Origin: a virus
Direction: 5' to 3' (one strand)
Length of the DNA stretch: 38,480 nucleotides
IMG/VR virus record: IMGVR_UViG_3300032217_000884
Location: 1-38,480 of that record
The position numbers and the translations under genes are program-made. Below the pieces are notes generated by a model, which saw only the letters and a list, made by a program, of their open reading frames with translations, did not search any database and was not told the origin of the DNA. Shown piece by piece: positions 8,170-38,480 of this stretch (position 1 is the first letter of the stretch; the number at the start of each line of letters is the position of its first letter).

Positions 8170-8191
8170 AATTTTATTGTATTTGTGTTCC

Positions 8192-11536: not shown

Positions 11537-11538
11537 GT

Positions 11539-11850: not shown

Positions 11851-12089
11851 GTGTCAATAATAGAGTCAATAGTGTTTATGTTAACAATGACACCATTGCC
11901 AGATTCTGGCACGTGAATGTTATAACCTTTTGTCAGCGTTTGCAGGAAGAACACTTCATGGGCTGTCTCTGGTATTACACGGTAGTGTTCTCCCTCTAGC
12001 TCTTTTACTTCAAAAGTAAAATCATTATGTGGGGCATTCACTCGCACAAGTGTTAGCGGGTTGTTTTCTATTTGTCTATTTGTAAACAT
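11847..12089 (-). CDS. Small hypothetical beta-rich protein
   Basis: Encodes 80 residues from the ATG at 12089. Alternating hydrophobic segments (FTFEVKELEGEHYRVIP, GYNIHVPESGNGVIVNI) suggest a small beta barrel or sandwich. The gene lies 14 nt after the HTH gene and overlaps the DnaA-domain gene by 4 nt, so it may work with it. It is richer in A and T than most of the block. No family was recognised. Confidence 0.65.
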   Translation of the reverse strand: MFTNRQIENNPLTLVRVNAPHNDFTFEVKELEGEHYRVIPETAHEVFFLQTLTKGYNIHVPESGNGVIVNINTIDSIIDT

Positions 12090-12103
12090 ATGATCTAAAA
12101 TTA

Positions 12104-12757
12104 TTATTCCATTTCTGATTCTGACTCAGGCTCAACGTCAATGATCGTTGGTTTCATTTTGGAGATTGTGCCATTTCCTCTATCTGTTTTTGCGTTATTC
12201 AAGATACTGATGTCAATTCGCATATTACTCAACCCGCCGCCGTTCTTGGAATTGAGTCCCAAATTGCGGCGGATTAACTGGTCAAGTTCAGATAGCTCAC
12301 GAACTGACTTTGGGCCTTTGAGGTTTTTCATCGAGTCACGGAGCAATTTGATTCCAGCGGCAGCGATGTAGTGCTGATACTTGTCAGCGGGTGAGGACTG
12401 TGATTCAGCGATCTCTAGCATCTGCTCGTCTTCCACTAAGCGAGCTTCTTGTTTTGCTAATCGGATGGCATCGCCCGTGTAGTTGTCGAGGTTCTCCTCA
12501 AGTGCGTTAGCGATATCGTCATCGTCGACGTATTCGATTTCTTCCGCATCCTCCCCCACTTCTTTCTCAGGAGCTTTTGCCTGCCGCCGCTTGGCGGGTA
12601 GTCCAATTTTTTTAAACCACCTACGCACTGTGCCGGGGTGGACATTGAGTTCTCGCCCGATGGACATGATCTTGTAGTCCTTGGCATAAAGCTCTAAGGC
12701 CCTCTGTAAAAGAGGGTTGTCAGAGAGCTGATCATTGTTTTCTAAGTCTAATTCCAT
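12104..12757 (-). CDS. HTH protein, probable terminase small subunit
   Basis: Encodes 217 residues from the ATG at 12757; the longer frame to 12862 would run into the terminase large gene on the other strand and is rejected. An N-terminal helix-turn-helix (about residues 22-53, with MSIGRELNVHPGTVRRWFKKIG) is followed by an acidic linker and helices typical of terminase small subunits, which recognise pac or cos DNA and feed it to the large subunit. It is transcribed away from terminase large with only 47 bp between them, which is unusual. A transcription regulator is the alternative. Confidence 0.72.
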   Translation of the reverse strand: MELDLENNDQLSDNPLLQRALELYAKDYKIMSIGRELNVHPGTVRRWFKKIGLPAKRRQAKAPEKEVGEDAEEIEYVDDDDIANALEENLDNYTGDAIRLAKQEARLVEDEQMLEIAESQSSPADKYQHYIAAAGIKLLRDSMKNLKGPKSVRELSELDQLIRRNLGLNSKNGGGLSNMRIDISILNNAKTDRGNGTISKMKPTIIDVEPESESEME

Positions 12758-14693: not shown

Positions 14694-14696
14694 CCA

Positions 14697-14773
14697 TTTG
14701 GGGAGGAAAAACTTTCTATATAATAATGTAGTTCATTAAGCCGGGCTTAATGAACTACTTCTTCTAAAAAAGA
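14697..14773 (+). repeat. 77-bp promoter-like palindromic element, copy 1
   Basis: This segment recurs at 38404-38480 with a single base difference. It contains a TATAAT box (14719-14724) followed by a 31-bp palindrome with 15-bp arms around one central G (GTAGTTCATTAAGCC, then GGCTTAATGAACTAC, 14728-14758). Transcription from the TATAAT would start at the palindrome, so the RNA would begin with a hairpin. It lies just ahead of the operon of the Pro/Thr protein, the coiled-coil protein and the giant protein. The -35 is poor (TTTGGGG region), so an activator or a phage-specific RNA polymerase is possible. Confidence 0.6.
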
Positions 14774-16651: not shown

Positions 16652-19600
16652 ATGTCAGAATATGATTTTCTCCTGAGTGAGGAACCCGCGTTGAAACTCC
16701 TGCCCTATTCCAAATGGTCTGCGGAGAATGCCCCTACAGATTCTCTCGACAGCCGCAAAAATTATGCGGACTATCTACGATCTGAGCATTTGGATGCTGG
16801 AACTTACGACGAAACAATCGAACGCGATATTCGCGAAGGATTGTTTAAATCCTCTGTTGATAAGACCTTTATTACAGACGATGATATTGGGCGAGAAGCA
16901 ACACTCACTGTTGCAGCACCCTCTTTAGATGAGCAACTTCGTTCAGCAGAAAACACGCTGCCCGCTGATACTCCAGAATGGGAAGCTATTAGTAAATACA
17001 AAGCATTTCGCAGGACAATTTTAGAGCAGCCAGATGCACCTGAGAGCTATAAGGCCCTCGGAGAAGAGTATAAAGCTAACGCCGAAGCTGCACTTTTAAA
17101 TACAGCCGATGACGTATTGCGCATGAAAATCCGCAATAATGAAATACCTTTTGCTAAGGTAACTGATGCAGACGGTAACCAACAAATTATTGCAAGTGAT
17201 TCCGCATTATCTATTCCGCTTAAGCAAGCATTGCTTCAGTCTAAAGGAGCAGGTGTTGGTCTTTCAGATGCGCTCGTAGCTAAGAACGAATTGGAAGTTC
17301 AAGAAGGGTTCTCGATTCCTCGATACAAACTACGGCGAGTGCTTGAAGCATCTGCTATGCTTGAGGAACTCGCTAAATCCGACGAGGGTATCTCGACTAG
17401 CATCGATGGATATGCTCAGCGGCTTGCCCGAACTGAATACGATTTTGGTGATACTGTTGGTTATCTGGCAGACTCACTGGGTCAGAGCATTACCGATGTT
17501 GTTCAACGTATAATTGGAAAGGGTGAGGAAGTTGATAAAAATCAAGCCTTACGGGATAAAGCAGAACGTGTTGCGCTAAATGATTTTTCAACAACTGCTG
17601 AATCAATTGCTTCCAAATTGAACTCTAGCGGAGCACTTCGCGATAGCGAGGCTTTTTCTGTTGATGAAGTTCAGCTTGCTATGAATGAGCTTGGCGTCAA
17701 TGCTGCCAACAATAAAGGCTATTTCCAATTCCACGACGGACCTAACGAAATCGGTAAAAATATCCGAAGCTACGGATTCGGTCTGCCATCAGTTGCTCCA
17801 TCATTGATGGCAAATAAAGTCAAGTTCGATCAAGCCCTCGCCGCTCGTAGTGACATCGATCCAAAAATCAAGTCTCAAATGGAGGGGCAAAGAAAAGCCT
17901 TCATTGAAAGTCAATTTTCTCAATTTGATAAACTGCTTCAACGAACCGACGTTGGAGAAGATTGGCTGAATACACTACAAGCTGCTCGCGCCAATGGTCA
18001 AAAAGACTCTACAACACTTGAGTCTTTCTTGAGCGACGATAAGAATTACAGTGAATTTTCCCAACGTGCCAAAGGCATTGGGATGTCTATTGTAGATGGG
18101 TTTGGACAATTGCTCGCAGCCGTTCCCGCAGTTATGGGTGCTGATTTTGCCCAAGATTATCTCTCTGGGGTTGCCCAGAAAAATTCTGATCGGCAAGAAC
18201 TTGCCAATTTGTTTGGCGTCGATATGGGGGTTACGCAAGAAATTGCGGAAGCTGTTGCGCCAATGCTAGTTGATATGACTGCAACTACTCTCCTTGCAGC
18301 TGCTACAGCACCTGCTGCTGGAGTGGGTGGTGCCGCATATCTCGCTGCAAAGCAAGGCGCTCGACTTACAGTTAAAGGAATTGTTAAAGGGATTACCTCT
18401 GGAGCGCTTCGTGCAGGTATTGGAGAAACAGCCGAAGTAGCTGCTAAGCGATTGGTTACTGAAGGTCTTATAAAGCAGTCTGTAAAAGATGCGGGGACAA
18501 AAGGAGCAATGGAAGCTATCAGAGGATATAGTGGGACGCTTGCGAATAAGATGAATATCGTAACTACATCCTTTATTCCGGCAGCTAATCGTTCAATGGG
18601 AGCCGCTTATGGTACCATGTTCAATCAGCTCTTGAAAGACCCAACGCTTACCCGCGAGCAAGCACATGAGCGGGCGCTGGGTGGTGCTTTAGCTTCGGGA
18701 GCTGTTACGGGTTTGATTACATCAGCCTTTGCTGGATTCGGCCACGGTGGTCTCGATACAGCACTTACGCGTGGTCTTACTCGTAATGAGATGAAGACAA
18801 TATTTTCGAGACTTACAAATGCTGCGGATGAAATTTCGGATAAAACCTTTAACGAGGTTATTAAAAAGTCACTTAAGAATACTTTCAAAGACTTTGGATA
18901 TTCCAGTCTCAGCAAATCAATTGCTAAGAATGCCTTTGATGAAGGGACTGAAGAAGCGCTAGATCAATTTATTGGGAGCTTTGTGCAAGATGCTGCACTA
19001 AATGGGAACACCCCAATGCTTGATCGGTTTAGCCAATCTTTCCACGCTTTTGTAATTGGCGGTGTAATGGGCGCGGGTGTTCCAGCAATTCAAGCCGTCG
19101 TTCCGTCGATCAATAGAGATGTACGTAATGCGTCTGCACGAAATCTTGAATTAAAAGCAATTACAGATATTACTGGACGTCTTAATGAGTCCGGATCTCC
19201 GATTACCGCACAGATTGTCAGCGCTCTTCTTACTGGACCGACTCGCCGTCGAGATCAAATGGCATCAGCCATTCAACAAAAAAGAAACGAAGCGGCAGCA
19301 GCAAGTATTGTGCCGCCCGTCGACGTTACGACTTCTGCTCCTGAAGTTGCTACGGCAGCCGCTGCGGCAGCGACACCAATTGATACTACTGCAGCGCCTT
19401 CTGATACCACGACAGCTCCAGTAGTAACTGGAGCTATTGAACCTATTGTTGCACCTCTTGCTGAACCTATTGTTGAACCTATTGTTGCACCTCTTGTTGA
19501 AGCAGTAACCGTAGAGAGTCTTGAAGAAGCACTATCTAAGGTAACACCAGAAGATGTTGAAACACTTATTCCAGCCGTTCGTCCAGAAGAACTTGAAGCT

Positions 19601-22600
19601 ACAGGTCAGATGGATCTCGGCTTATATGTTACTCAGACGAATAGTGAGAGACCTGCGGCAGTAGCACCATTTAACATGCTCAATTTTAAATCGATCAAGC
19701 CTGTGATGGAACAGCTTGGTCTTGATTTTAATGACGTTGTCCAATCCGAGCTTCAAGACTTGTCGTCAAGCCCCACAATTATTCCAAGGATAGATCTCGC
19801 AACCTCCTCTGGAGGAACTGTAATGCTTGAAGCAAACCCCGATCTATTTGTTGGTGATGAAGCTACTGTCAAAGCCGAACAAGAAACCTTTAATAGGATC
19901 GCTCAAACGGGATTTCCCATATCATTTCAAACTAGTGTTCGTTTTGGAATGCCAAAGCGGAATGTGTCTGAAAAAGCCACTGGACAAAAATCGTATTATG
20001 GAACGAAGTCGAATGAGCTGGCTGGACTGATCTATAAAAATTATCCAGTAACGGTATTGGCACCTGTTGAAGCGGGCAGTAAATACGCCAGTCAACGTAA
20101 AGTTACTTTCTTTGACGCCGTCTCAGGCAAGAGAGTTTCCCGCCAGATTAAAGGGGTGCTAGATGCAAATGGTAATGGGGTATTTAATAATGACCCCGTT
20201 CTAATTTCGGAAATGATTCGCGACGGTATTCCTGTCCGTATTCCGAAGAAGTTCGTCGGTCCCGTCAATCCTTCTCTCGTTGTCCGTAAAGGATACATTG
20301 TAGATGTTCTTGGCCCACGTGCCGATGGCAAAGCAGGACTTGTGTCTATGACGGCTCCGATTGAGCGCACGCTTACCAGCGAACCCGATTATCAATCTCT
20401 CTATGAAGCGAGTGGATTGGCATCACTCTTTATTGATGACATTACAAACGAGCGCGTCATCCCATCAGGCGCTCCTGTTATTGATAAATCTGGAAAGATG
20501 CTTAAGGACGGTGGGAATGAAACAAGCGTTGGTGAGCTTGTTACAAATTTTAATCAATTTGTTTTTAATGCGACCATGCCGGAAGAGCAACAAGGCGCAG
20601 CGGCTTCCAACGAACGTGGCTCTCTTCGTGAGAACGCCTCCAAGCGCATACGCGAAATGCTGAGGCTTCGCAGCGGTTCCGAACTTGATTCCGGATTCTT
20701 TGATACTGCACTCCAAGCACTTCATACTGAATATATCTACCATGCAAACCTATTTGAGGTTCGCTCTTCACTGATCAATTCTGGAATTACTGCTGAAACC
20801 CAAGCCGGGATCGTGATCCCTACAACGAAATCCAAAGCAGCTGTAAAGCTACTGATGGCTCGATTGAAGGCGGATAGCAAGACAACGGTTGCTGAGCGAC
20901 TTGCGCCATTCGTGAATACGGATGCCAAAACAATAAGCAGGAATCCGGATGCAGTGATTCTATCGTTCCTAAATTCAATGGTGCTCAATAACCCACGCTT
21001 TGATGGGGATGTAATGCCAACAATCAATCAGTTATCAGATACCATTAAGGCACGCTATGCCGAACAACAGAAGACACGCGGAATTGAAGAGCGCGTGAAG
21101 GCTTCCATTTCGATGGATCCTTCAATTATGGATAAAATTGATATACAGAATCTTTCCAGAAGTGGGACATATATCGGAGAGCCTAGCACTCTAACTTCAG
21201 AACGCTTTTCTGATAATGAGATTTCCAGAGTCCTGAAGCAGGCAGAGTTTAATGCTATCAATGCTATCGACGAAGATGCAGATCTACGTGATGCCCTTAA
21301 TGACCTGCTGTTCCAGTCCGTTTATAAAAATCCATCTGCGAATCAAGTAAGCCGTGTTGTTGGAATGACAACTGTAGATGCCTATGGCACTTTAGCTAAC
21401 TGGATTGCCAGTGGAAATTTTGACCATCCAGAAGTCCTCGCCTTTGAGCGTAGCCTCCGTAGTGGGGAGTTCGCTTCTGGAAATGATCTTCGTTCTGCCC
21501 TTTCATTATCCAGACTTTCTTCTCGCGCTAGCGAGACGGAGAATCCCACAGAGGATAAAGCTTTCGTAGATGCAGTCCGTAATGAAATCGGAAGGTCTCT
21601 CAATCAAACTGTATCGATTGAAAGCGCTAAGAACTTTATTAAAGCCTTGGATAAAGGAATTCGTAAGCGGATGTCCCGCTCACATATTACAAGTGCTCAA
21701 GCAAACATAGCACGTAGCTTAAATACTATTGAAGTAAATAAGCTCGGCATTAAATCTGGAGATGCTCAGTCGATAATTGAAGCGCTAAAGGCGATCTCTA
21801 AGACGTCAAAGAACGGTAATCACAAGCTAGTAGCTGAGCTGCTATTGGAAGATCCAGCCTTTATCAAACGAATTAAGTTTGAAATTGGCACTGCAGATCA
21901 TTCCATTGCGGGTGAATATAATAGGCTCACTGATGGTTCCCACAGTGTCTTCATCAATCTTAACGGCTTCAACGGTCGCGGACTTACCAATGTTCTACTT
22001 GAAGAATACGTCCATGCATTCCTTTCAGATACGCTTAACAAGCCTAAGGAGGCTTTGAATGATGCACAGAAGATGGCTATCGCCCGCTTGAATGGGTTGA
22101 TGGAACTTGTGCGGCAGCAAGCAGAGAGTGAGGGTATTACCAACCCATCGCTTCTTGATGGGCTTGAAAATATCGACGAGTTTGTTGCCAGCTTTCTTCT
22201 ATCGAAAAAATTCCAAGCCCTTGTAAAATCGGTCAACCCACCTCAAGGGCAGCGTGGTTTCTTTGGGCGGATCATCGATGCAATGGTCAGCCTATTCAGA
22301 AAAGTAACCAATAAAGAGAAGAAGGGTTATGCAGAAGCATTGACGGATATCCTCGATCTCTCACGTTCCGCAATGGGCGCTGAGCGCAATACAGCAAAAG
22401 CCCTATTTTCTTCTGTTGCAGGAGATGCTTCCGATTCTCTTGAGCGAGCAGCAGCTGTCCGCGATACGCTTCCAGCGAGTGTTATCGCTGCTACTGCTGT
22501 AGCACCCACTCTTAGCCAAGAAGAAATGGCAATTGCCGCAGTAACTGCCACACAGGAGGACGCTAATAAAGCGCTTGTAGCAGAACAAAATAAAGTCACG

Positions 22601-25600
22601 ACCGCAAATATTCCACAATCTTCCGTTAATTCGGATACTGAACAAGTAGCTAAGGCACATCTATTGATGCGTTCTATTCGGAATATGATTCCATTGGAAG
22701 TCCGCCTTAAGTTTATCACTGCAAAAGAAGCAGCGCAACTCGGAGACTCTCGCCGCTTTATTGCCAGCGCATTTGGAGACGAGATCTCCATCGACATGTC
22801 GCGGCTTATGTCATATGTCGACGGTCTAGATAACCTCACATCAAACATGCTTGTTGAGAGTGTAATTGCAGAAGAACTTGGGCATGTTGCGTCCTATAAC
22901 GCACTCACTCAAAATCAGATTGATTCAATTGTTGACTCACTAAGTCAGAATGAACTCGATGCTCTTGCAAATTCGTATTATCAAACTGATGAGACTCGGC
23001 AAGCTTCCAAGGACTTGCTACGGTCAGAGGATCTTACTGAATCGTATACCGAGAAACGCCGACTTGTTGAAGAGCAGCTACGCGCCCACCTTCAGAGAGT
23101 TACTACAGGCCACTCCACAGAAGAAAATGCGGCTTTCCTGCGCACCAACCCCTCACTGTTTAAGATCGTCCTGCGTTATATTGGAGGAGCCTTCCGGAGA
23201 ATGGTCGGTCTTCGTTCAGTTGGTAATCCCCACATGGATGTGGCCCTTAGTCGCATGCTCGTTGAGATGCGTGCGCTTAAGATGGGATATCGGAACGGGC
23301 CTGCTTCCCTACGCTTTGATCCCAATAGTCCAGCGGCTTCAATGGAGGCATTCCGCGCCATTACAGGTATCGACGACTTGGAAGAAATTGAAGCAGCGGG
23401 TTTCGATGAAGACGTTTCCGAGATTCTTTTTTCCCAGATTGGACTTGAGGATTTCAAAAGGATTCAACGCGCTAGCCGACCGCTATCGGAACAGGTTGCA
23501 GATCAACCTACAGATCAGCCACTCATCAAGACATCAGAAGACGTCCCCTTCCCTCTTATTATCGAGTCCATTACTGGAAGCTTCGGTCTCTCTTGGAAAG
23601 ATGTTTCCAAAGAACTCATCAATGATTTTGAAACTGTTTATAAATTTGAAGAGGTTGCTGGTGAATATAGGGCCACTCCAATTTATGAAATGATGAGTCT
23701 GCCCACTATTTCCGGAGATCCAGATACTCCTGAAGTAGTTGAGCTTGAAGCGGCTAAAGCATTCCTAAATCGCAGATTGAATAAGACCATTAGAAATGGA
23801 CTTGCCGCTAACGATATTGAGCTTCCAGAACTAGTTAATAATAATCTAGTAGAACAGTTTATTGATACAATTCTACTTGATGCCGTTGATTTTGGAAATG
23901 GCGTACAGCTTATTCTAAATGGCAATGCAGATGCAGAAAATGAAGAGACTTTGATTACCGCTTCTGGCGACTTTTCTGAACTCACAGCTTCAAATACAAA
24001 ACCAATCAATATTGACAAATTAAAAGAGACTCTTTTTCAAATTGATGGATTTGAACTAAAAAATGAATCAATTAAATTTAATGGAAATATAAAATTTGAT
24101 GCTATAATTACACGTGGCACTAAGAAATACTCAATGGATTTTGATATAAATCAAAATACAAAAAATATCCACGTCGGATCTCTTTTCCCAATAAACGGTG
24201 GTGAAGTATCAGGAAGTGATTCGTTTGGAATGGATCTTCTACTGGCGCTTATCTCTAATAACCATCTTATTGGTGCAAAGACGCTCGATACTTATGCTGC
24301 TGGAAATGCCAAAACTGTAAATCAAGAAACGCAAAGAAATGTAGAGCGCCGACAACTGGCAATGGAACGTGGAGAAGAATATAATCCGGATCCCTCTATG
24401 TTATTCAAGGGCTTCAAAGCGTGGCCAAAAATAGGTTTCGATACAGAGCTGACTAGATATTATCTTGAATCTATGGCAGACGAAAACCAAGAGTCTGCTG
24501 GAATTATCGATGAAATAAAGCAGCTTGCAGCGGATGCAGATGGTAAACTCACACTAGTGCAACTCATGCACTTAGGTCCGGACGCAAAACGGGGGACTGT
24601 TATCTGGTCGAATTATGGTGTTGGTTCAAACATGGTCTTTAACTTGGAGTCTGGCAGTCCAAGTATGCAGGCTTTCGGAAAAATGATCGAGCGGGCTGTT
24701 AAACTAAAAGGGACAGTCGAAGAAATTAAACCGCTTCGCCAAACGTATGCCCGTTCTCTTAAGAATCTGGAATCAATCGGACTTTCCGCAGAGGAACAAA
24801 AAAGCAGAGAACAAGAGATCCGAAGTAATTTCATTGCTGGATTAAATAAACTCGGTGTCAATCCCGATAGGCTTCTTACAAGTCTTGGAAGTGGTGTAGC
24901 CTTTAGTGGCAAGTCAATCAACTTCGACCCACTACTTGAGACTCTTGAGATGCCACTGTTTGAAGCGGGCACATACAAAGCCCCTTCTGGTAGTCTACTG
25001 CGTGCTTTCCTTGGTGAGCTTGACCCCCGCATCAAGAGACTCAATGACAATCGCATGGCCTTTAATCGAGCTGCGACTTCAATCGTTACTCGATATAAAG
25101 CTACTCTTGATAAGCTGGTTATCGCACGTTATGGAGCAATCGCTAATGCTCCAAATGATCTGATCGCAGAAGCAATGGGTAGCACGGGCATCGAAGTATC
25201 CGAAGTTGAATACGATAAGATCGAAGATGAACATACCGCACGACTCGTAGCCATCCGAAATGATACAGCGCTAACTGATGATAAGAGATCAGAAGCAATT
25301 CTGGAATCGGCACGTCTCCGTGATGCTGCTCTTACCGATGCGCGGTCTCTTGCCAGAGAAGCTTTCATTCGACGTAAGGATTCTGCAATAACAGCACTCA
25401 GCTCACAAGCTCCAGAGATCGCCGCACACATCGCAGATATTCGTGGAAAGTTAATTGATCCTTTGTCAATGAAGCTTAAGAAAGATTACAATATGACCGA
25501 AGAGTTCGGTATTCATATTGATAGCCAACTCGGCATCTATATGACACGGGCTTACCGGATGTTCAATGAGATTGGTTTCTCTGATCGCGTTAAGCAGGAT

Positions 25601-27949
25601 CCAAAATATCAGGATGTAAGAGACCGTGCAATTGAGTTCTTTGAACGGGATTTTGTAAAACAAGAGAAGAGAAGACTGCAACGTGAGGGCATCCTTCCAG
25701 CAGATGCAGAGCTTCAAGCCAAAGATGCACTGATCAATAAGCGTAGTAGCACTGGGCAATCCTATGGGCAACAAGCTCTGATGGCTTTCATTGAGAGCTA
25801 TAATGGCAACTCGGGTGCGCCGACCAATATTGGCGAAGGCTATCGAGTAATGCTTAATAATCTTAAGACAAAGAAGGACATCCCGCCAGCGCTTAGAGAC
25901 CTCCTTGGTGAATACAAGAACTCAGAAGAGGGAACAAACAATCTTCTTCGCACGTTCGTCACTGTGGCTTCGATGTCTTCCAATCAATCATTCCTCAATA
26001 ACATCCGCACGCTCGGAGAACGTAATGGCTTCATGGTTCCTGCTGAAGAATACCATAAGGATCCGACTAAGTATGATGGCTTCATCCCCTTCCGTGAATC
26101 CACTACATCGAAGCATGATCCATTGCTCGGCGTGTATGCTCCGAAAGAAATGGTGGAAGGATTCCAAAAAACATTCGATTCCAACTCGCTTCGCCGCAAT
26201 ACAAATCACGCAATCGATATTGTGGACTCAGCTATGGGGGTTCTCAATAAAGCAACAGGCTACGCGATGGCTACGAAGACGCTGGGATCTGCCGGATTCT
26301 ATTTGCGGAACGTGCTCTCAAACATGCTGTTCTTTGGGCCTGCTCAAGGCTTCGGAAGAATCGATAAAATGCTAAAGGTCGCTGCGGAACATTCATGGGC
26401 GGGCCTTAAAGATCAGAATCGCATCGATGGTTACCTTGCTGAACTCACTGCGCTAGACATTATTGGAAATGAGATCCAATCAAATACCATCAGGGACTTG
26501 ATCAATGGCAAGGCTGAGGCTTCAGGAATCATGAAGCAGCTCGACGATGTGATGAAGAAGACTCAAGTATCCAAAGGCAAAGAAGCACTATCCTTTCTCG
26601 TTGATAAAGCGGGTAGGCTCGCAGCTGCTGCCGATGCCGTCTACAAGATTGCTTACTTTGAACACGAACTCAGGCTTCTCAAGCAAGCTCAAGCCGCTTC
26701 CAATACGGGCAGCGTTACTGATATGAGTGAGTATCAGCTTAAGCGACTTGCTGCTGAGAAGGTTTTGAGGACAGCACAGTCAGCTAGCCAAGCACCACCG
26801 ATTGTTTCAGAGATCACAAAGTCGGGACTTGGCCTGATGTTCGCGCCGTTCCTACGGTTCAAAGCGGAAGTTCCACGGATCGTAATCAACACCTATAAAC
26901 TATCTGTTGAAGAGATGCGTGACGACAATCCGAAGATCAAAACTCGCGGTATGCAGCGGTTCGCATCGATGACTTCGATGCTTGGACTTGTATCCGTAGT
27001 AATCCCAAGTGCATTGCGTGTGCTTGTTTCGGGTATCGACGATGAAGAAGATGATGCTCTGCGTAGTTCGATGCCCGAGTATCTTCGTGGTCATACTTTC
27101 TACTACTTCGGAAGCGGTGATAAACTTCAGTCCGTCGATCTTTCATTCATCAATCCATTTAGCTTGATGGTGGATCCTTCGCTACGCGCAATGGAAGACT
27201 TGGTTCACGGGCGTGTTGGATCTGCCGCATCAAAGTTTGCTCAAGGAATGATCTTTGACCAATATCTAGACGACCAGATTCTGGCTGGTTCTGTATCAGA
27301 TCTACGCAAGAACGTAGACGCGACAACGGGTGAGCCAATCTGGGAACAAGATATCGACGGCGCTGGGAGCGTCCTGTCTAAAGGACTGGGTTACATTTTG
27401 AATAGGGCCTATTCCCCACGTATCGTATCTGACGCGATCAAAGCATACGGAGCAGTTGGTGGAGACTTTAGTGAGTTCGACGACAGCCCGCTCGGGTTAA
27501 TGCTAAGCGGTGTGTATCCAGTTCGTATCCACGATATCGATCTAGACAAACAATTCGGACGTTACCTTCGCGAGAAGAAGGAGCAATTTGATCGGGTCAC
27601 CCGCAATAAATACGCGGCGTATAGTGAGCGTCCGTTTACAGAAGATAGTCTACGCGAACTATACAACGATGAAGTTGCCAATCGCCGCAGCCTAAATCAA
27701 GATCTTGTTAGGATCTCGCGTGGCTTTGAAGGGCTGGGCATGACGCCTACTGAGATCTACAAGAACATGACTACACGCGGTGGCATTAGCAAGCGGAGAG
27801 CTGGTCTTCTATTTAACAACTTAATGGATCGACCAGATCTTAATAAGGGATTTCTACAAGGTCTATTGCAGCGTGAGTTTGGAATGGAACGGGCCAAGGT
27901 TCTCATAGACCAGATGGAGAATCATCCGAGATACATGTTCGTAGAGTAA
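16652..27949 (+). CDS. Giant polyvalent / internal virion-type protein, 3,765 residues
   Basis: Probably carried in the particle and delivered with the DNA, as giant proteins of podovirus-like phages are. Visible layout: helical N-terminus; Ala/Gly-rich hydrophobic stretches near 531-566 and 800-818; a Pro/Thr/Ala linker near 885-950; a zincin-like domain with LLEEYVHAF (E1784-H1788) and a downstream IDEFVASFLLSKKFQ; an ALFSS motif at 1917-1921; a second zincin-like domain with AEELGHVAS (E2074-H2078) and ILFSQ at 2258; an AT-rich-encoded insert near 2440-2560; a long helical region; and a C-terminal part (about 3200-3765, FYLRNVLSNMLFFGP onward) that resembles the LPD38 domain of polyvalent proteins, with a hydrophobic segment near 3440-3461. 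No RNA polymerase motif was found. The start follows an AT-rich leader without Shine-Dalgarno. Confidence 0.8.
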   Translation: MSEYDFLLSEEPALKLLPYSKWSAENAPTDSLDSRKNYADYLRSEHLDAGTYDETIERDIREGLFKSSVDKTFITDDDIGREATLTVAAPSLDEQLRSAENTLPADTPEWEAISKYKAFRRTILEQPDAPESYKALGEEYKANAEAALLNTADDVLRMKIRNNEIPFAKVTDADGNQQIIASDSALSIPLKQALLQSKGAGVGLSDALVAKNELEVQEGFSIPRYKLRRVLEASAMLEELAKSDEGISTSIDGYAQRLARTEYDFGDTVGYLADSLGQSITDVVQRIIGKGEEVDKNQALRDKAERVALNDFSTTAESIASKLNSSGALRDSEAFSVDEVQLAMNELGVNAANNKGYFQFHDGPNEIGKNIRSYGFGLPSVAPSLMANKVKFDQALAARSDIDPKIKSQMEGQRKAFIESQFSQFDKLLQRTDVGEDWLNTLQAARANGQKDSTTLESFLSDDKNYSEFSQRAKGIGMSIVDGFGQLLAAVPAVMGADFAQDYLSGVAQKNSDRQELANLFGVDMGVTQEIAEAVAPMLVDMTATTLLAAATAPAAGVGGAAYLAAKQGARLTVKGIVKGITSGALRAGIGETAEVAAKRLVTEGLIKQSVKDAGTKGAMEAIRGYSGTLANKMNIVTTSFIPAANRSMGAAYGTMFNQLLKDPTLTREQAHERALGGALASGAVTGLITSAFAGFGHGGLDTALTRGLTRNEMKTIFSRLTNAADEISDKTFNEVIKKSLKNTFKDFGYSSLSKSIAKNAFDEGTEEALDQFIGSFVQDAALNGNTPMLDRFSQSFHAFVIGGVMGAGVPAIQAVVPSINRDVRNASARNLELKAITDITGRLNESGSPITAQIVSALLTGPTRRRDQMASAIQQKRNEAAAASIVPPVDVTTSAPEVATAAAAAATPIDTTAAPSDTTTAPVVTGAIEPIVAPLAEPIVEPIVAPLVEAVTVESLEEALSKVTPEDVETLIPAVRPEELEATGQMDLGLYVTQTNSERPAAVAPFNMLNFKSIKPVMEQLGLDFNDVVQSELQDLSSSPTIIPRIDLATSSGGTVMLEANPDLFVGDEATVKAEQETFNRIAQTGFPISFQTSVRFGMPKRNVSEKATGQKSYYGTKSNELAGLIYKNYPVTVLAPVEAGSKYASQRKVTFFDAVSGKRVSRQIKGVLDANGNGVFNNDPVLISEMIRDGIPVRIPKKFVGPVNPSLVVRKGYIVDVLGPRADGKAGLVSMTAPIERTLTSEPDYQSLYEASGLASLFIDDITNERVIPSGAPVIDKSGKMLKDGGNETSVGELVTNFNQFVFNATMPEEQQGAAASNERGSLRENASKRIREMLRLRSGSELDSGFFDTALQALHTEYIYHANLFEVRSSLINSGITAETQAGIVIPTTKSKAAVKLLMARLKADSKTTVAERLAPFVNTDAKTISRNPDAVILSFLNSMVLNNPRFDGDVMPTINQLSDTIKARYAEQQKTRGIEERVKASISMDPSIMDKIDIQNLSRSGTYIGEPSTLTSERFSDNEISRVLKQAEFNAINAIDEDADLRDALNDLLFQSVYKNPSANQVSRVVGMTTVDAYGTLANWIASGNFDHPEVLAFERSLRSGEFASGNDLRSALSLSRLSSRASETENPTEDKAFVDAVRNEIGRSLNQTVSIESAKNFIKALDKGIRKRMSRSHITSAQANIARSLNTIEVNKLGIKSGDAQSIIEALKAISKTSKNGNHKLVAELLLEDPAFIKRIKFEIGTADHSIAGEYNRLTDGSHSVFINLNGFNGRGLTNVLLEEYVHAFLSDTLNKPKEALNDAQKMAIARLNGLMELVRQQAESEGITNPSLLDGLENIDEFVASFLLSKKFQALVKSVNPPQGQRGFFGRIIDAMVSLFRKVTNKEKKGYAEALTDILDLSRSAMGAERNTAKALFSSVAGDASDSLERAAAVRDTLPASVIAATAVAPTLSQEEMAIAAVTATQEDANKALVAEQNKVTTANIPQSSVNSDTEQVAKAHLLMRSIRNMIPLEVRLKFITAKEAAQLGDSRRFIASAFGDEISIDMSRLMSYVDGLDNLTSNMLVESVIAEELGHVASYNALTQNQIDSIVDSLSQNELDALANSYYQTDETRQASKDLLRSEDLTESYTEKRRLVEEQLRAHLQRVTTGHSTEENAAFLRTNPSLFKIVLRYIGGAFRRMVGLRSVGNPHMDVALSRMLVEMRALKMGYRNGPASLRFDPNSPAASMEAFRAITGIDDLEEIEAAGFDEDVSEILFSQIGLEDFKRIQRASRPLSEQVADQPTDQPLIKTSEDVPFPLIIESITGSFGLSWKDVSKELINDFETVYKFEEVAGEYRATPIYEMMSLPTISGDPDTPEVVELEAAKAFLNRRLNKTIRNGLAANDIELPELVNNNLVEQFIDTILLDAVDFGNGVQLILNGNADAENEETLITASGDFSELTASNTKPINIDKLKETLFQIDGFELKNESIKFNGNIKFDAIITRGTKKYSMDFDINQNTKNIHVGSLFPINGGEVSGSDSFGMDLLLALISNNHLIGAKTLDTYAAGNAKTVNQETQRNVERRQLAMERGEEYNPDPSMLFKGFKAWPKIGFDTELTRYYLESMADENQESAGIIDEIKQLAADADGKLTLVQLMHLGPDAKRGTVIWSNYGVGSNMVFNLESGSPSMQAFGKMIERAVKLKGTVEEIKPLRQTYARSLKNLESIGLSAEEQKSREQEIRSNFIAGLNKLGVNPDRLLTSLGSGVAFSGKSINFDPLLETLEMPLFEAGTYKAPSGSLLRAFLGELDPRIKRLNDNRMAFNRAATSIVTRYKATLDKLVIARYGAIANAPNDLIAEAMGSTGIEVSEVEYDKIEDEHTARLVAIRNDTALTDDKRSEAILESARLRDAALTDARSLAREAFIRRKDSAITALSSQAPEIAAHIADIRGKLIDPLSMKLKKDYNMTEEFGIHIDSQLGIYMTRAYRMFNEIGFSDRVKQDPKYQDVRDRAIEFFERDFVKQEKRRLQREGILPADAELQAKDALINKRSSTGQSYGQQALMAFIESYNGNSGAPTNIGEGYRVMLNNLKTKKDIPPALRDLLGEYKNSEEGTNNLLRTFVTVASMSSNQSFLNNIRTLGERNGFMVPAEEYHKDPTKYDGFIPFRESTTSKHDPLLGVYAPKEMVEGFQKTFDSNSLRRNTNHAIDIVDSAMGVLNKATGYAMATKTLGSAGFYLRNVLSNMLFFGPAQGFGRIDKMLKVAAEHSWAGLKDQNRIDGYLAELTALDIIGNEIQSNTIRDLINGKAEASGIMKQLDDVMKKTQVSKGKEALSFLVDKAGRLAAAADAVYKIAYFEHELRLLKQAQAASNTGSVTDMSEYQLKRLAAEKVLRTAQSASQAPPIVSEITKSGLGLMFAPFLRFKAEVPRIVINTYKLSVEEMRDDNPKIKTRGMQRFASMTSMLGLVSVVIPSALRVLVSGIDDEEDDALRSSMPEYLRGHTFYYFGSGDKLQSVDLSFINPFSLMVDPSLRAMEDLVHGRVGSAASKFAQGMIFDQYLDDQILAGSVSDLRKNVDATTGEPIWEQDIDGAGSVLSKGLGYILNRAYSPRIVSDAIKAYGAVGGDFSEFDDSPLGLMLSGVYPVRIHDIDLDKQFGRYLREKKEQFDRVTRNKYAAYSERPFTEDSLRELYNDEVANRRSLNQDLVRISRGFEGLGMTPTEIYKNMTTRGGISKRRAGLLFNNLMDRPDLNKGFLQGLLQREFGMERAKVLIDQMENHPRYMFVE

Positions 27950-30369: not shown

Positions 30370-30633
30370 TTAAGCGTCGTGGTCGAATGTGATTGAGGTG
30401 ATCGCTTTCTTTAAAGTCTCAACTGATTCCGCTTCAAAGCTACCCACTGTCGCTGCAACCGCCGTGGCGAATGATGTTAGCTTGGAGTCAATGTGGAGGC
30501 GAGCTGATCGAAGAGAGCATGCAGGAGTGAATGCAATCACAGCCCATCCAGATGGACTCTTCGACTCGCGCCGTGACTTGAGTTCGATTTCGTTTTTGTT
30601 GATCTCTATGGATACTGTTGTTTTTTCGTTCAT
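30370..30633 (-). CDS. Hypothetical protein, 87 residues
   Basis: ATG at 30633, overlapping the stop of the small membrane protein gene as ATGA. A strand-rich N-terminal half (TTVSIEINKNEIELKSR, GWAVIAFTPACSL) is followed by an Ala/Ser-rich helical C-terminal half. No family was recognised. Confidence 0.65.
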   Translation of the reverse strand: MNEKTTVSIEINKNEIELKSRRESKSPSGWAVIAFTPACSLRSARLHIDSKLTSFATAVAATVGSFEAESVETLKKAITSITFDHDA

Positions 30634-30734
30634 GATATTAGGATAAAAGCAATTACTGTTAATGTGGTTATGAGGCCCACCATCATCAGGAGTTGTCCGG
30701 ATGACAGTGGGCTGGTTGTTGGGGTTCGATGCAT
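30630..30734 (-). CDS. Tiny membrane protein, 34 residues
   Basis: ATG at 30734, stop at 30630. A short polar N-terminus (MHRTPTTSPLSSGQ) is followed by a single hydrophobic helix to the end (LLMMVGLITTLTVIAFILIS). It starts 3 nt after the VWA gene stop and overlaps the next gene by ATGA, so it is tiled into the operon directly below the ATPase/VWA module and may anchor or accompany it. Confidence 0.6.
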   Translation of the reverse strand: MHRTPTTSPLSSGQLLMMVGLITTLTVIAFILIS

Positions 30735-30737
30735 ACC

Positions 30738-32144
30738 TCAGCGGGCTGTGACTTTCACTCGTTCACCGAAGGGATACAGTTCGGGGTTGTGTCCATAGTC
30801 AAGCCAGAGGACGGGATAAGCTGGCTCCTTTACAAACGGCCAGTCATACGCCTCGCCATCTGTAAGGTAGACAAGACCATCGATGTGCGGTGCATTCTCT
30901 TCGACCCAGTCAAAGGCGGGTGCAAACTTGGTGCCGCCCCCACCTTTGATTGTCAGCGGAACCTGATCACCTGAGCGCAGCTCGATTACTTCACGGAGGC
31001 AGTGATCAACAGACAGCAGGTAGATACAGTCAGGCTTGAGGGTATCGAGCGCATCCTGCACAGCTTCCAACATCTCCTTCAGGATCGATGGATCGATGGA
31101 GCAGCTGCTATCGATTACGATGGCAATATCATTTACATCCTTCTTCTGTCGACCTGCCGAGATGAGTCCAGTAGATGTGAAGATAGGTGCATTGAATGGC
31201 TTGTCCCATCCGGACTGGCAGCGTGCAGTGAACCACTGCTTGAGGTATTCAACCCAGTCCATACCTTCACGGAAAGCACGGAGCTTACCCACTTCCCGCA
31301 GCCCGCTGCCACCGCTGATGCCTGCTCTCTTATTCAGTGCCTCGGCAAGGATGATCTGCTCGTTGCAGTCTTCGATCTCACGTTCGACATCCTCCTTGCT
31401 GAGTCCTGCATCTGGGTCAGCTTGTGGGGCGAAGGTATCCTCGGCACCGGATCCTACCCATTCATCACCCAAGATGTCCGAGTCAGACTTGTTGCCGGAA
31501 CCGGAGGCACTGTCGCCACCTGCACTGCCGTCGTCTGCACCGCCGTCGTCTGCACCGCCGTCGTCGCCGTCGTCACCTGCTGTGTCGTCGCCGTCGTCAC
31601 CTGCATCAGGTTGTGGCTGTGGCTGTGGCTGTGGCTGTGGCTGTGGCTGTTGCGGTGGTGGTGGCGGTGACTTGAACAGCTCGTCGTAGAGTTGCTCGGC
31701 GCTCTTGTCTCCGCTAAGCGTTTCGTCAATCAACACGTTAGCGATGAGCGGGAAGGGGATCCGCTTCCGACCTGACCGCTGAAAGACTTCCTTGTTGCGG
31801 CGGACGATCATCGCATTGATGACGTAGTCGGCAGCACGATTGGCTGTGTCACGGTCGATGAACTTGGAGAGCCGTGTGCCGTGTGACAGCATGGCGTGTA
31901 GTGATTCATGAGCAAGGAGGAAAGCACAGTGACCGACTGGGTCACTCGTCTTGCTGATGCGGTCAAGCCCATCAGGATTCAGGATCAGGCGCTTGCCGTC
32001 TGTTGCACCGTAGGCTGTGGATGATGTCCACTCCCACTTCATGGCGAGAAGCTTGGTATAGGCCAGCGGCCAATACTTGCGGACTCGGCGCATCGATCTG
32101 GCAAGTAGGCAATCTCCGTTGTGGTCGTATTGAATAGCGTTCAT
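30738..32144 (-). CDS. Metallopeptidase-like HExxH plus VWA domain protein (DUF2201/CobT-like)
   Basis: Encodes 468 residues. The N-terminal domain carries LLAHESLHAMLSH with H79, E80, H83 and H88, the HExxHxxxxH zinc-peptidase layout of the putative metallopeptidase domain usually paired with a VWA-like domain. A linker follows (about 158-220): a Pro-rich stretch, (QP)n, then Asp/Gly-rich repeats. The C-terminal VWA-like domain has a MIDAS motif D345-x-S347-x-S349 (VIDSSCSI), T405 in GGGGTKF and D429 in YLTDGEAY. Upstream on the same strand are a DUF3150-like gene and a MoxR-type AAA+ ATPase, the usual partners. In such pairs the ATPase remodels targets bound by the VWA protein; the phage target is unknown. 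Confidence 0.87.
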   Translation of the reverse strand: MNAIQYDHNGDCLLARSMRRVRKYWPLAYTKLLAMKWEWTSSTAYGATDGKRLILNPDGLDRISKTSDPVGHCAFLLAHESLHAMLSHGTRLSKFIDRDTANRAADYVINAMIVRRNKEVFQRSGRKRIPFPLIANVLIDETLSGDKSAEQLYDELFKSPPPPPQQPQPQPQPQPQPQPDAGDDGDDTAGDDGDDGGADDGGADDGSAGGDSASGSGNKSDSDILGDEWVGSGAEDTFAPQADPDAGLSKEDVEREIEDCNEQIILAEALNKRAGISGGSGLREVGKLRAFREGMDWVEYLKQWFTARCQSGWDKPFNAPIFTSTGLISAGRQKKDVNDIAIVIDSSCSIDPSILKEMLEAVQDALDTLKPDCIYLLSVDHCLREVIELRSGDQVPLTIKGGGGTKFAPAFDWVEENAPHIDGLVYLTDGEAYDWPFVKEPAYPVLWLDYGHNPELYPFGERVKVTAR

Positions 32145-32222
32145 GTTTCAGGATTCAGGTATTGTGTTTCAGGATTCAGGGTTCAGGTGACAGGGGATCG
32201 GACCCTGTCACCGGATGGTAGA
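32145..32222 (-). promoter_or_regulatory. Intercistronic hairpin and CCTGAATCC leader repeats before the VWA gene
   Basis: A perfect 10-bp hairpin (GGTGACAGGG at 32186-32195, CCCTGTCACC at 32203-32212) sits just after the DUF3150-like stop. Between it and the VWA start are CCTGAATCCTGAA repeats, shared almost exactly with the leader at 34627-34661. It may tune the expression ratio of the two proteins. Confidence 0.6.
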
Positions 32223-33104
32223 TTACAGACCGAGATCAGTCAAGGTCTTTTCTGCTGCAGCTTTCGCTGCGGCGATACGTTGTGCATGCTCTCGGCGTTG
32301 GTGTGCTTCCGGAAGTGTATCAGCTTGGATGATACACGGCTTAAGCAGTTCGATCACGGCATCCAACTCTGGAAGGTTCAGCCAGTTCTTCTTGCGCAGT
32401 TCCTCAGCGCAGTTCTCGAGACGGTCGAACCGTTCTTGTCTGAGGCGCTGGCCCTTCGTCAGTGCCGTGATGGCATCACCCATCTCGGCAATCGCAGCGG
32501 AGATGCACCCACCGTGTGCCTCCAGCAGCATCTGACTCACAGCCTGCTCGCTGCTAGCACGGACTCGGGCAGCTGTCTCGCTACTCACCTTGGCCAGCAC
32601 AGTGCCTTCGATGGACTGCGGTTGACCCAGCCACTTGAGGTCGAACTTGTAGCCAGCGATGAACTCATCAACGGTCGGCCACTCGACCTCCTCACGGAAT
32701 CCGTTGATGTGCTTGAGCGCCTCGCTGACATAGCTCTCGTAGTCCCGGCGGATCTCCGAGAGCAAGCCGTCGATAGCGTCACGGCGGGAGTCGAACTCCG
32801 CTTGGATCTCGTCGGCATCCGTGGCCTGCTGGTAGGTGGTGCCATCGAAATCCGGCACGCTCATGCCCTTCTTCTTGAGGAAGATTGACATGCCGTTGAT
32901 CAGGTTGTTGACCTCGCCAATGGCGTTGCCCTTCGTGACGAAGAGCTTGGCAGACGGAGCACGGACGAACTTCTCGTCGGCCCCGTTTGCATAGGCAATC
33001 TTCTTGTGTGTGGTCTCCAGTGTAGCGGACAGCTTGGGCTTGCCAGTGACGAGGCGAACCATGAGGATGGAATTGATGGTGGTGAGGTCAGTCATTGCGT
33101 TCAT
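32223..33104 (-). CDS. DUF3150-like helical partner of ATPase/VWA module
   Basis: Encodes 293 residues, mostly helical. It lies between the ATPase and VWA genes on the same strand, the position DUF3150 proteins take in CobS/CobT-like phage and integrative-element cassettes. Segments such as KLFVTKGNAIGEVNNLINGMSIFLKKKG and the long helix over EIQAEFDSRRDAIDGLLSEIRR fit that family by general pattern. No catalytic motif is visible, so an adaptor or substrate-delivery role is plausible. The start at 33104 is preceded by the AT-rich leader TAGATAAAACTT. The family name is tentative; the module membership is more secure. Confidence 0.65.
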   Translation of the reverse strand: MNAMTDLTTINSILMVRLVTGKPKLSATLETTHKKIAYANGADEKFVRAPSAKLFVTKGNAIGEVNNLINGMSIFLKKKGMSVPDFDGTTYQQATDADEIQAEFDSRRDAIDGLLSEIRRDYESYVSEALKHINGFREEVEWPTVDEFIAGYKFDLKWLGQPQSIEGTVLAKVSSETAARVRASSEQAVSQMLLEAHGGCISAAIAEMGDAITALTKGQRLRQERFDRLENCAEELRKKNWLNLPELDAVIELLKPCIIQADTLPEAHQRREHAQRIAAAKAAAEKTLTDLGL

Positions 33105-33141
33105 AAGTTTTATCTAATTTGTTGTTCGTATTACTAAGGGG

Positions 33142-33172
33142 GGCTTGCTGTGCTACCGTAGCACAGCAAGCC
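33142..33172. terminator. Long hairpin between ATPase and DUF3150-like genes
   Basis: A perfect 15-bp stem GGCTTGCTGTGCTAC / GTAGCACAGCAAGCC with a single central base. It resembles the palindrome cores of the terminators further right, sharing TGTGCTA. There is no T run on the minus strand, so it may be an RNA-processing or attenuation hairpin rather than a full terminator. Confidence 0.6.
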
Positions 33173-33179
33173 AGAGTTT

Positions 33180-34265
33180 TCAGATGCCCTGCATAGCGGA
33201 GCGGCGTGGGTGCTGGTCAAGGGGCAGTCCGTTTCGGAGTGCGCTGTCGTATGTCCACTTACGGATCTCGCCACCGGAGGGGCAGATGATGCGGTCAACC
33301 AGCCAGTCGAGTAGGCCACCAGCAACCGCTGCCTCGGGATCGTTGCCGACTAGCTGCTTGGCTTGCCGGATGGCGGCGAAGCTCAGTGCATACTGTTCCG
33401 CCGGATCTGATGGCATCGACTCATCACCGTTGCGGATGGCCCGCAGCTTGGGTAACATCGCGCCGACCGTCTGACAGAATGCATAAGCGGCGGATCCACT
33501 GGCCACACCTACTAGGCCGGACAGCGTAAGGCTTAGCAGCGCAGGCTCATCGAGCAGGTCGCCACGGGCAGCACGGCACACCGCTTCCCATTGCCGGGGA
33601 CAAGCATGGGGTGACCCATCCCACGGTGATGGCACATTAGGGTTGAAGTGGTCAACGCCTTCGACGCCGTTGCTATACTTGAGGAAGGCATAGACTGGAG
33701 AGTCTGCCAGCCCAGCGATTGCTGCCCACTCAAGCCACTCATCAAGTGTCGGCTCGACAATGAAGGAAGCGGTGCGTTCCACGATTGGAGCAGCTGGTAC
33801 AGCGGACCGTGTGCCATCGCTGCGGCGATTGCCAGTGAGCATGATCTTGACGTTGCTACCCAAGCGGTGAGTCCCGATCATTGGAGCACTGCCATCCGGC
33901 TGGAACAGCGAGCGGCAGAGGCTCTGGATCTGGACGTCCCACTCGGGAAACTCGTCGAGCACTAGCAGCGTCGGAGTGGATCCGACACGGTCGGCAGTGG
34001 GCCACTGCTCAGGGCTGGAGAACCACAGGTCCCGTGTCGTGCTGTCCGGAATGCCATAGCCTAAAGCCTCTTGCGGGCCAGAGCCGCTGAGGTTGACGAT
34101 CCACACATCAGAGGGATCGATGTTCAGTGACGGAGCGATAACGGTTTTTGCGATGGTCGTCTTGCCTGTGCCGCCTTTGCCGTAGACGGCGAGCCAGCGG
34201 CCTGAGCCGATGACATGGGGGGCGAGAAGGCCGAGTTGCTTGATCGATGCGGATGGTGCTTTCAT
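33180..34265 (-). CDS. MoxR/CobS-type AAA+ ATPase
   Basis: Encodes 361 residues. Walker A is GKGGTGKT (29-36), Walker B is LLVLDE (100-105) and sensor 1 falls at N146 in IMLTGNR. The length and the adjacency to a DUF3150-like and a VWA/HExxH gene are characteristic of MoxR or CobS-like ATPases that work as a chaperone or remodeller with a VWA adaptor. It is the first gene of the module: the conserved promoter repeat TTGACT-N16-TAAGCT lies upstream at 34305-34332 on the minus strand. The C-terminal half is divergent and has no recognised domain. Confidence 0.85.
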   Translation of the reverse strand: MKAPSASIKQLGLLAPHVIGSGRWLAVYGKGGTGKTTIAKTVIAPSLNIDPSDVWIVNLSGSGPQEALGYGIPDSTTRDLWFSSPEQWPTADRVGSTPTLLVLDEFPEWDVQIQSLCRSLFQPDGSAPMIGTHRLGSNVKIMLTGNRRSDGTRSAVPAAPIVERTASFIVEPTLDEWLEWAAIAGLADSPVYAFLKYSNGVEGVDHFNPNVPSPWDGSPHACPRQWEAVCRAARGDLLDEPALLSLTLSGLVGVASGSAAYAFCQTVGAMLPKLRAIRNGDESMPSDPAEQYALSFAAIRQAKQLVGNDPEAAVAGGLLDWLVDRIICPSGGEIRKWTYDSALRNGLPLDQHPRRSAMQGI

Positions 34266-34304
34266 TTGGTGGTGTGTGTTGGTGTGATTCAGGGTTGAGC
34301 TATC

Positions 34305-34332
34305 AGCTTATGCGGCAGATGGCTTAAGTCAA
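34305..34332 (-). promoter_or_regulatory. Conserved promoter repeat, copy A (before the ATPase module)
   Basis: On the minus strand TTGACT (34332-34327) is followed after exactly 16 nt by TAAGCT (34310-34305), with AAAGAA ahead of the -35 and CTCAACCCTGAA after the -10. The same arrangement recurs at 35764-35791 and 36293-36320. The -10 is non-standard but conserved. Confidence 0.65.
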
Positions 34333-34626: not shown

Positions 34627-34675
34627 ATGTTCAGGATTCAGGTATTGTGTTTCAGGATTCAGGGTAAGAGTGGAA

Positions 34676-34708
34676 GGGGAGGCCATACTACCATAGCACA
34701 GCCTCCCC
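34676..34708 (-). terminator. Repeated terminator hairpin, copy 1
   Basis: GGGGAGGC / GCCTCCCC arms (8 bp) enclose a 17-nt core with CTATGGTAG. It lies directly after the stop of the Gp88-like gene. The core recurs at 35818-35850 and 36346-36378. The T run here is weaker than in the other copies. Confidence 0.7.
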
Positions 34709-35744: not shown

Positions 35745-35850
35745 GTTTCAGGGTTGAGTTATTAGCTTAGGCATCTAATTGCTTAAGTCAATTCTTTTTT
35801 TTTAATTGCAGTAAAAAGGGGAGGCCATACTACCATAGCACAGCCTCCCC
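35742..35850 (-). repeat. 109-bp terminator-promoter-leader repeat, copy B
   Basis: In minus-strand order it holds a GGGGAGGC/GCCTCCCC terminator with T5 (35850-35818), an A-rich stretch, TTGACT (35791-35786), 16 nt, TAAGCT (35769-35764) and the leader AACCCTGAAACATG, which includes the start codon of the Gp88-like gene. It matches 36271-36378 except for one T in a homopolymer run. It ends one gene and starts the next. Confidence 0.85.
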
Positions 35851-36273: not shown

Positions 36274-36378
36274 GTTTCAGGGTTGAGTTATTAGCTTAGG
36301 CATCTAATTGCTTAAGTCAATTCTTTTTTTTAATTGCAGTAAAAAGGGGAGGCCATACTACCATAGCACAGCCTCCCC
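36271..36378 (-). repeat. 108-bp terminator-promoter-leader repeat, copy C
   Basis: The near-identical partner of 35742-35850, with the terminator at 36346-36378, -35 TTGACT at 36320-36315 and -10 TAAGCT at 36298-36293. It stops the 220-residue gene and starts the basic protein gene. Confidence 0.85.
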
Positions 36379-38292: not shown

Positions 38293-38403
38293 ATCCAGGA
38301 TTTCGGAACCCCGATTCAGGGTACGGGAGCCTTATTCTATATAGGAAAAGGGGTATCGGGAGCGGCTTTTCGCGGCTGCGTCAGTTTATTTTGAGTTCTG
38401 CCG
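38293..38403 (+). other. Short non-coding stretch before the right-hand element
   Basis: No ORF of note. It contains CAGGATTTCGG and GATTCAGGG repeat-family motifs and an AT-rich spot (TTCTATATAGG). No clear terminator is visible. Confidence 0.4.
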
Positions 38404-38480
38404 TTTGGGGAGGAAAAACTTTCTATATAATAATGTAGTTCATTAAGCCGGGCTTAGTGAACTACTTCTTCTAAAAAAGA
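38404..38480 (+). repeat. 77-bp promoter-like palindromic element, copy 2 (cut by window)
   Basis: Matches 14697-14773 in the same orientation except for one base: the right arm reads GGCTTAGTGAA instead of GGCTTAATGAA. In RNA the change turns an A-U pair into a G-U pair, so the hairpin is kept. It probably starts another plus-strand operon beyond the window. Confidence 0.65.

What the first reader, a model, noticed from the sequence alone, without database searches (positions are those of the whole stretch)
30630..34332. Phage-borne MoxR-type ATPase / DUF3150-like / HExxH-VWA triad with a tail-end tiny membrane protein
Three genes in one leftward unit encode an AAA+ ATPase (Walker A, Walker B, sensor Asn), a helical protein and a fused HExxHxxxxH metallopeptidase-like plus MIDAS-bearing VWA-like protein, followed 3 nt later by a 34-residue membrane protein and preceded by a conserved promoter. 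MoxR-VWA and CobS/CobT-like pairs are chaperone or chelatase machines in bacteria, and their phage role is not established. The fused peptidase motif and the added membrane peptide suggest a machine that acts on a host or virion protein at the membrane, possibly in host takeover or counter-defence.
Basis: partly seen in the sequence, partly recalled or inferred. Interest (0 to 1): 0.7.

Follow-up and report, generated by a model that had tools for sequence, protein, structure and literature searches.

The report
Phage three-part protein-remodelling machine genes
This virus of bacteria carries three linked genes for a probable ATP-driven protein-remodelling machine with a built-in peptidase-like domain; the two main parts are already known from hundreds of phages, and what is new is that a third, unstudied helical protein travels with them across diverse viruses.

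Summary
Three leftward genes encode a MoxR-type AAA+ ATPase, a helical DUF3150-like protein and a fused HExxHxxxxH metallopeptidase-like/VWA protein (Pfam DUF2201_N + DUF2201). The AAA+, zinc-motif and MIDAS residues are nearly invariant in relatives. The ATPase plus peptidase-VWA pair is not new: it is N4 gp24/gp25 (core genes of Schitoviridae) and was described in jumbo phages by Iyer et al. 2021, who proposed virion assembly. The added result is the third gene. In 47 of 56 viral loci with enough upstream sequence, a DUF3150-like gene sits beside the pair, in two gene orders that interchange at least about four times on a quick VWA tree, so a three-part machine is likely. No held paper mentions DUF3150. 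The 34-residue membrane ORF is recognisable only in the closest relative, and small membrane ORFs are not significantly enriched after the VWA gene (p=0.12), so the membrane idea is unsupported. Gene context is non-structural and N4 gp24/25 are middle genes; I favour early/middle remodelling and cleavage of a non-virion target over late assembly, at moderate confidence. By-product: PHROG 1314, labelled 'HNH endonuclease', is really this metallopeptidase-VWA family.

The parts
33180..34265 (-). MoxR-type AAA+ ATPase, 361 aa (Walker A G29-T36, Walker B D104-E105, sensor 1 N146, Arg finger R164, R224)
   Evidence: phrog_1297 1e-31; profile matches Midasin 2e-27; residues invariant or nearly so in 19 sequences
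32223..33104 (-). DUF3150-like helical protein, 293 aa, third component
   Evidence: 72% identical to L002, 22-52% to others; PF11348 in 8 of 17 aligned members; model mostly helical, pLDDT 72, no PDB fold match at E<0.001; linked in 47 of 56 viral loci
30738..32144 (-). Fused metallopeptidase-like (HESLHAMLSH, residues 79-88) and VWA-like (MIDAS D345-S347-S349, T405, D429) protein, 468 aa, with a Pro/Gln/Asp-rich linker (about 160-225)
   Evidence: PF13203 and PF09967, phrog_1314 1e-55; VWA folds matched in PDB; motif conservation
30630..30734 (-). 34-residue hydrophobic ORF, 3 nt after the VWA stop and overlapping the next start by 4 nt; probable lineage-specific small membrane protein
   Evidence: counterpart only in L002/L117; no significant enrichment of such ORFs after VWA genes
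34305..34332 (-). Repeated upstream element TTGACT-N16-TAAGCT, promoter-like
   Evidence: three copies in the window before start codons; not called by the consensus scan
33142..33172 (-). Hairpin between ATPase and middle gene, no T-run
   Evidence: -25.4 kcal/mol, z -5.3
32184..32215 (-). Hairpin between middle gene and VWA gene
   Evidence: -20.2 kcal/mol, z -3.8
32147..32180 (-). CCTGAATCCTGAA repeat just before the VWA start codon; one copy also lies before the VWA gene of L003, L008 and L011
   Evidence: 4 copies in the window, 0.01 expected; loci

Best explanation
The three genes encode one ATP-driven protein-remodelling and processing machine. By analogy with Midasin, RavA-ViaA and NorQ-NorD, the ATPase forms a hexameric ring; the VWA domain uses its MIDAS metal to bind an acidic residue on a substrate or adaptor and couples the ring to it; the DUF3150-like helical protein is a third subunit, probably an adaptor or specificity factor; and the fused HExxHxxxxH domain cuts the exposed substrate. 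It most likely acts early or in mid infection on a non-virion target (phage replication/transcription complex or a host complex), not at the membrane. Shown here: family identities, residue conservation, linkage of the three genes, non-structural context. Inferred: the complex, the peptidase activity, the direction of coupling, the timing in this virus. Unknown: the substrate.
For: ATPase profile matches Midasin 2e-27. DUF2201_N + DUF2201 in the window protein and in N4 gp25 (3e-87, 1e-46), S-TIM5, phage G, CRP-7, a Rhizobium phage and, partly, phiR1-37. VWA model matches VWF A2 (1e-4) and, more weakly, a chain of a NorQD complex (4e-3) and MDN1-MIDAS (1e-2). Catalytic and MIDAS residues retained almost everywhere. 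The triad is linked in 47 of 56 viral loci; orders ATP-MID-VWA 43 and MID-ATP-VWA 16 among all viral loci, with at least 4 order changes on a quick VWA tree. dN far below dS for ATPase and middle protein against L002 (0.16 vs 1.5; 0.22 vs 1.1). Non-structural context: in the window the terminase and the giant ORF are on + and the triad is on - with GP88, L5 gp82 and DUF6717 genes; of 127 neighbour proteins in other loci the named families among the 25 listed are DNA polymerase, primase/helicase, ligases, nucleases and peptidases, none structural; MinM2 has the triad near its primase; N4 gp24/25 are middle genes (PMC4193335).
Against: No experiment on any member with this domain layout was found. 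N4 (first 40 kb), phiR1-37, S-TIM5 and CRP-7 have no detectable DUF3150-like gene in the stretches searched, so it is not obligatory. S-TIM5 has the pair beside structural genes and Hsp20, and a single peptide of an AAA-family ATPase was found in virions of Staphylococcus phage DC4 (PMC10638138); both fit assembly. Loci were collected by the VWA protein, so co-occurrence is conditional on it. The middle protein's model is of modest confidence.
Confidence: 0.5

Rival explanations
1. Virion assembly and maturation machine: the ATPase-VWA pair acts as chaperone and the peptidase trims structural proteins, as Iyer et al. 2021 proposed for group 2.2 jumbo phages and as p618/p892 are thought to act in tail development of an archaeal virus.
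For: Published proposal (PMC7824862); ATV p618-p892 biochemistry as reviewed in PMC4124505; S-TIM5 neighbourhood; one ATPase peptide in DC4 virions; core gene status in Schitoviridae (PMC4193335).
Against: Non-structural, often replication-type neighbours; opposite strand to terminase and giant ORF in the window; middle-gene timing in N4. The archaeal pair lacks the peptidase domain according to PMC7824862.
Confidence: 0.25
2. Host takeover or counter-defence factor, possibly at the membrane through the 34-residue protein.
For: Early/middle-type location; hydrophobic ORF directly downstream in the window and L002.
Against: The membrane ORF is not conserved and such ORFs are not significantly enriched; the pair is core in Schitoviridae (PMC7650795), unlike typical accessory counter-defence genes.
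Confidence: 0.12
3. Metal-insertion (chelatase-like, CobS/CobT or NorQ/NorD type) machine in which the HExxH motif binds metal for delivery rather than cutting protein.
For: MoxR-VWA pairs include such systems (general knowledge); a NorQD chain is among the fold matches.
Against: No metallo-enzyme maturation gene is a recurrent neighbour among the families listed; HExxHxxxxH with the following conserved Asp/Asn looks like a zincin active site and Pfam names it so; an M28/M42-like peptidase gene lies upstream of the ATPase in a subgroup.
Confidence: 0.08

Closest known systems
Escherichia phage N4 gp24-gp25 (Schitoviridae core pair; PHROG 1314 for gp25-type proteins)
   Same: Adjacent ATPase and DUF2201_N/DUF2201 fusion, matched by the profiles made here, non-structural location
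   Different: No DUF3150-like gene detected in the 40 kb searched; distant in sequence
MoxR AAA+ / metallopeptidase-vWA pair of group 2.2 jumbo phages (Iyer et al. 2021, PMC7824862)
   Same: Same two components, including the N-terminal metallopeptidase fused to vWA
   Different: The passage read describes no third component; an assembly role is proposed there
Synechococcus phage MinM2 MoxR ATPase - DUF3150 - VWA-like genes (OQ594354)
   Same: All three parts in the same order and near a primase
   Different: Small genes inserted between the parts; annotated but no study found
Cellular MoxR-VWA pairs (Midasin, RavA-ViaA, NorQ-NorD) and actinobacterial ATPase-DUF2201 pairs
   Same: MoxR-clade ATPase plus MIDAS-bearing VWA partner
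   Different: Midasin, RavA-ViaA and NorQ-NorD lack the peptidase-like domain (general knowledge); the actinobacterial pairs have it but no DUF3150-like gene was detected beside them
Acidianus two-tailed virus p618/p892
   Same: Viral MoxR ATPase stimulated by a VWA partner (PMC4124505)
   Different: Archaeal virus, p618 is a virion component, no peptidase domain

Membership tests
MoxR clade of AAA+ ATPases | AAA+ core motifs (Walker A/B, sensor 1, Arg finger) | tested here: met
   invariant or nearly so in 19 sequences
MoxR clade of AAA+ ATPases | Closest sequence kin among solved structures is a MoxR/Midasin-type ATPase | tested here: met
   Midasin 2e-27, next family 2.5e-7
MoxR clade of AAA+ ATPases | Hexameric ring with helix-2 insert | not tested
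   no model of the ATPase or of its oligomer was made
DUF2201 metallopeptidase-VWA (PF13203 + PF09967; PHROG 1314) | Both domains above curated cut-off | tested here: met
   47.1 and 59.2 bits against 23.2 and 26.4
DUF2201 metallopeptidase-VWA (PF13203 + PF09967; PHROG 1314) | HExxH zinc motif and DxSxS-T-D MIDAS intact | tested here: met
DUF2201 metallopeptidase-VWA (PF13203 + PF09967; PHROG 1314) | Proteolytic activity | not testable with these tools
   needs an assay
DUF3150 (PF11348) | Match to the Pfam model above cut-off | tested here: inconclusive
   window protein itself does not match; 8 of 17 aligned members match, best 1.2e-4; the distant member L041 matches a phage protein annotated DUF3150 at 5e-38
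HNH endonuclease (label of PHROG 1314) | HNH nuclease domain | tested here: not met
   Pfam finds DUF2201_N/DUF2201 (and a weak VWA match) in the window protein, and only DUF2201_N/DUF2201 in N4 gp25
MoxR-vWA-VMAP ternary conflict systems (Kaur et al. 2020, PMC7159879) | VMAP third component | tested here: not met
   the third gene is DUF3150-like; no VMAP match appeared in the Pfam scans of the window proteins

The most novel reading that the evidence does not exclude
DUF3150-like proteins are a dedicated third subunit of a widespread phage AAA+ protease-like machine that acts in mid infection: a class of viral ATP-dependent protease assembled from a MoxR ring and a VWA-coupled zincin, with the third subunit setting the target.
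Probability: 0.3. Interest if true: 0.75.

Novelty: new variant of a known kind. Interest (0 to 1): 0.45.

Why it matters
A match to this peptidase-VWA family occurs in 586 of 50,697 phage records, including the model phage N4, and no paper found here gives it a tested function. A recurring third gene gives a testable handle on how it finds its target. The wrong 'HNH endonuclease' label in phage annotation hides the family from people who look for it.

Tried and rejected
Searches with the middle protein or near relatives found nothing in phages, plasmids or genome contigs until more distant members were used as query (then 92, 94). Foldseek of the middle-protein model gave no match at E<0.001. 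The tiny membrane protein as a module part was tested against other genes and not supported. The 3765-aa ORF as an N4-type virion RNA polymerase: no Pfam match, no significant PDB match and one weak PHROG match (0.0027) of unknown function; a direct comparison with N4 gp50 failed on reading frame and was not repeated. Data on N4 gp24/gp25 essentiality were sought in two knockdown papers without success. My idea of an amidotransferase/gamma-glutamyl cluster upstream in a subgroup was not supported for the large upstream genes tested.

Full report
What is there. On the - strand of a 38,480-base virus record lie, in order of transcription, an ATPase gene (34265-33180), a helical-protein gene (33104-32223), a peptidase-like/VWA gene (32144-30738), a 34-codon hydrophobic ORF (30734-30630) and an 87-codon ORF that overlaps it by 4 nt. 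Gaps between the first three are about 75 and 78 nt and hold stable hairpins; a promoter-like repeat stands before the ATPase and before two other genes, though a consensus scan does not call it.

Identity. The ATPase matches PHROG 1297, and its profile finds Midasin first among solved structures. The 468-aa protein matches both Pfam domains of DUF2201 above cut-off; its VWA half matches solved VWA folds, including chains of a NorQD complex and the Midasin MIDAS domain, although weakly for those two. The residues that define function are kept in nearly every homologue examined. The middle protein itself does not reach DUF3150, but 8 of 17 aligned members do, and a chain through a Devosia locus leads to a phage gene annotated DUF3150.

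Distribution. A search with the VWA alignment returned 75 viral loci. Of 56 with at least 3.5 kb upstream, all have the ATPase and 47 have the middle gene. Two gene orders occur, and a quick maximum-likelihood tree of the VWA protein needs at least four changes between them; the tree has long branches and the exact number is uncertain. In the loci held, the middle-gene profile hits lie near the other two genes, and no such hit appears beside the ATPase-VWA pairs of actinobacterial chromosomes. The loci were selected by the VWA protein, so these are conditional frequencies, and the weakest middle-gene hits (E near 1e-3) are less certain. Three genes that stay together while their order is reshuffled are the best evidence that they form one functional unit.

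Function. Position speaks for a non-structural, early or middle role: opposite strand to terminase in the window, replication-type neighbours elsewhere, and N4 gp24/gp25 as middle genes (PMC4193335). The published proposal is assembly (PMC7824862), with support by analogy from an archaeal virus (PMC4124505); S-TIM5 and one peptide in DC4 virions fit it. Neither is proven. The membrane reading rests on the 34-aa ORF, which is not generally conserved; counter-defence is disfavoured by the core status of the pair in Schitoviridae.

Novelty. The pair is known. The linked third gene is not described in any paper found here (one search gave no paper that mentions DUF3150), although single genes are annotated in GenBank. 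I therefore rate it a new variant of a known kind.

Annotation error. PHROG 1314 is named HNH endonuclease, and RefSeq records such as N4 gp25 carry the name, yet Pfam finds only the DUF2201 domains in N4 gp25, at 3e-87 and 1e-46.

Noticed in passing
PHROG 1314; L031 (N4) 11164-12306, L034, L036: The family is labelled 'HNH endonuclease' and the label is carried into RefSeq phage records, but it is the DUF2201 metallopeptidase-VWA family.
   Followed up: yes
L037, L038, L040 (Prosthecobacter debontii MAG contigs): Partial copies of the metallopeptidase domain, 46-51% identical, without ATPase, on contigs with bacterial-looking genes; may point to Verrucomicrobiota as hosts.
   Followed up: partly
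window 16652-27949 (+): 3765-aa ORF with no Pfam match, no significant PDB match and only a weak PHROG match, close to a remote terminase.
   Followed up: partly
window 14694-14773 and 38401-38480: 80-nt repeat, 98% identical, with an inverted repeat; one copy is at the very end of the record.
   Followed up: no
window 35796-35850, 36324-36378, 34654-34708, 33119-33173: Family of 14-15-bp hairpins with a conserved apical GUGCUAYGGUAG; two are followed by a T-run like terminators.
   Followed up: partly
L120, L122, L125, L143 (also L124), genes upstream of the ATPase: M28/M42-like peptidase gene (PHROG 4191 in three neighbour proteins) upstream of the ATPase in a subgroup; assignment tested directly for L122 and L143 only.
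   Followed up: partly
window 7815-8602: Seven copies of a repeat with 69-nt spacing in two blocks, within ORFs on the - strand.
   Followed up: no
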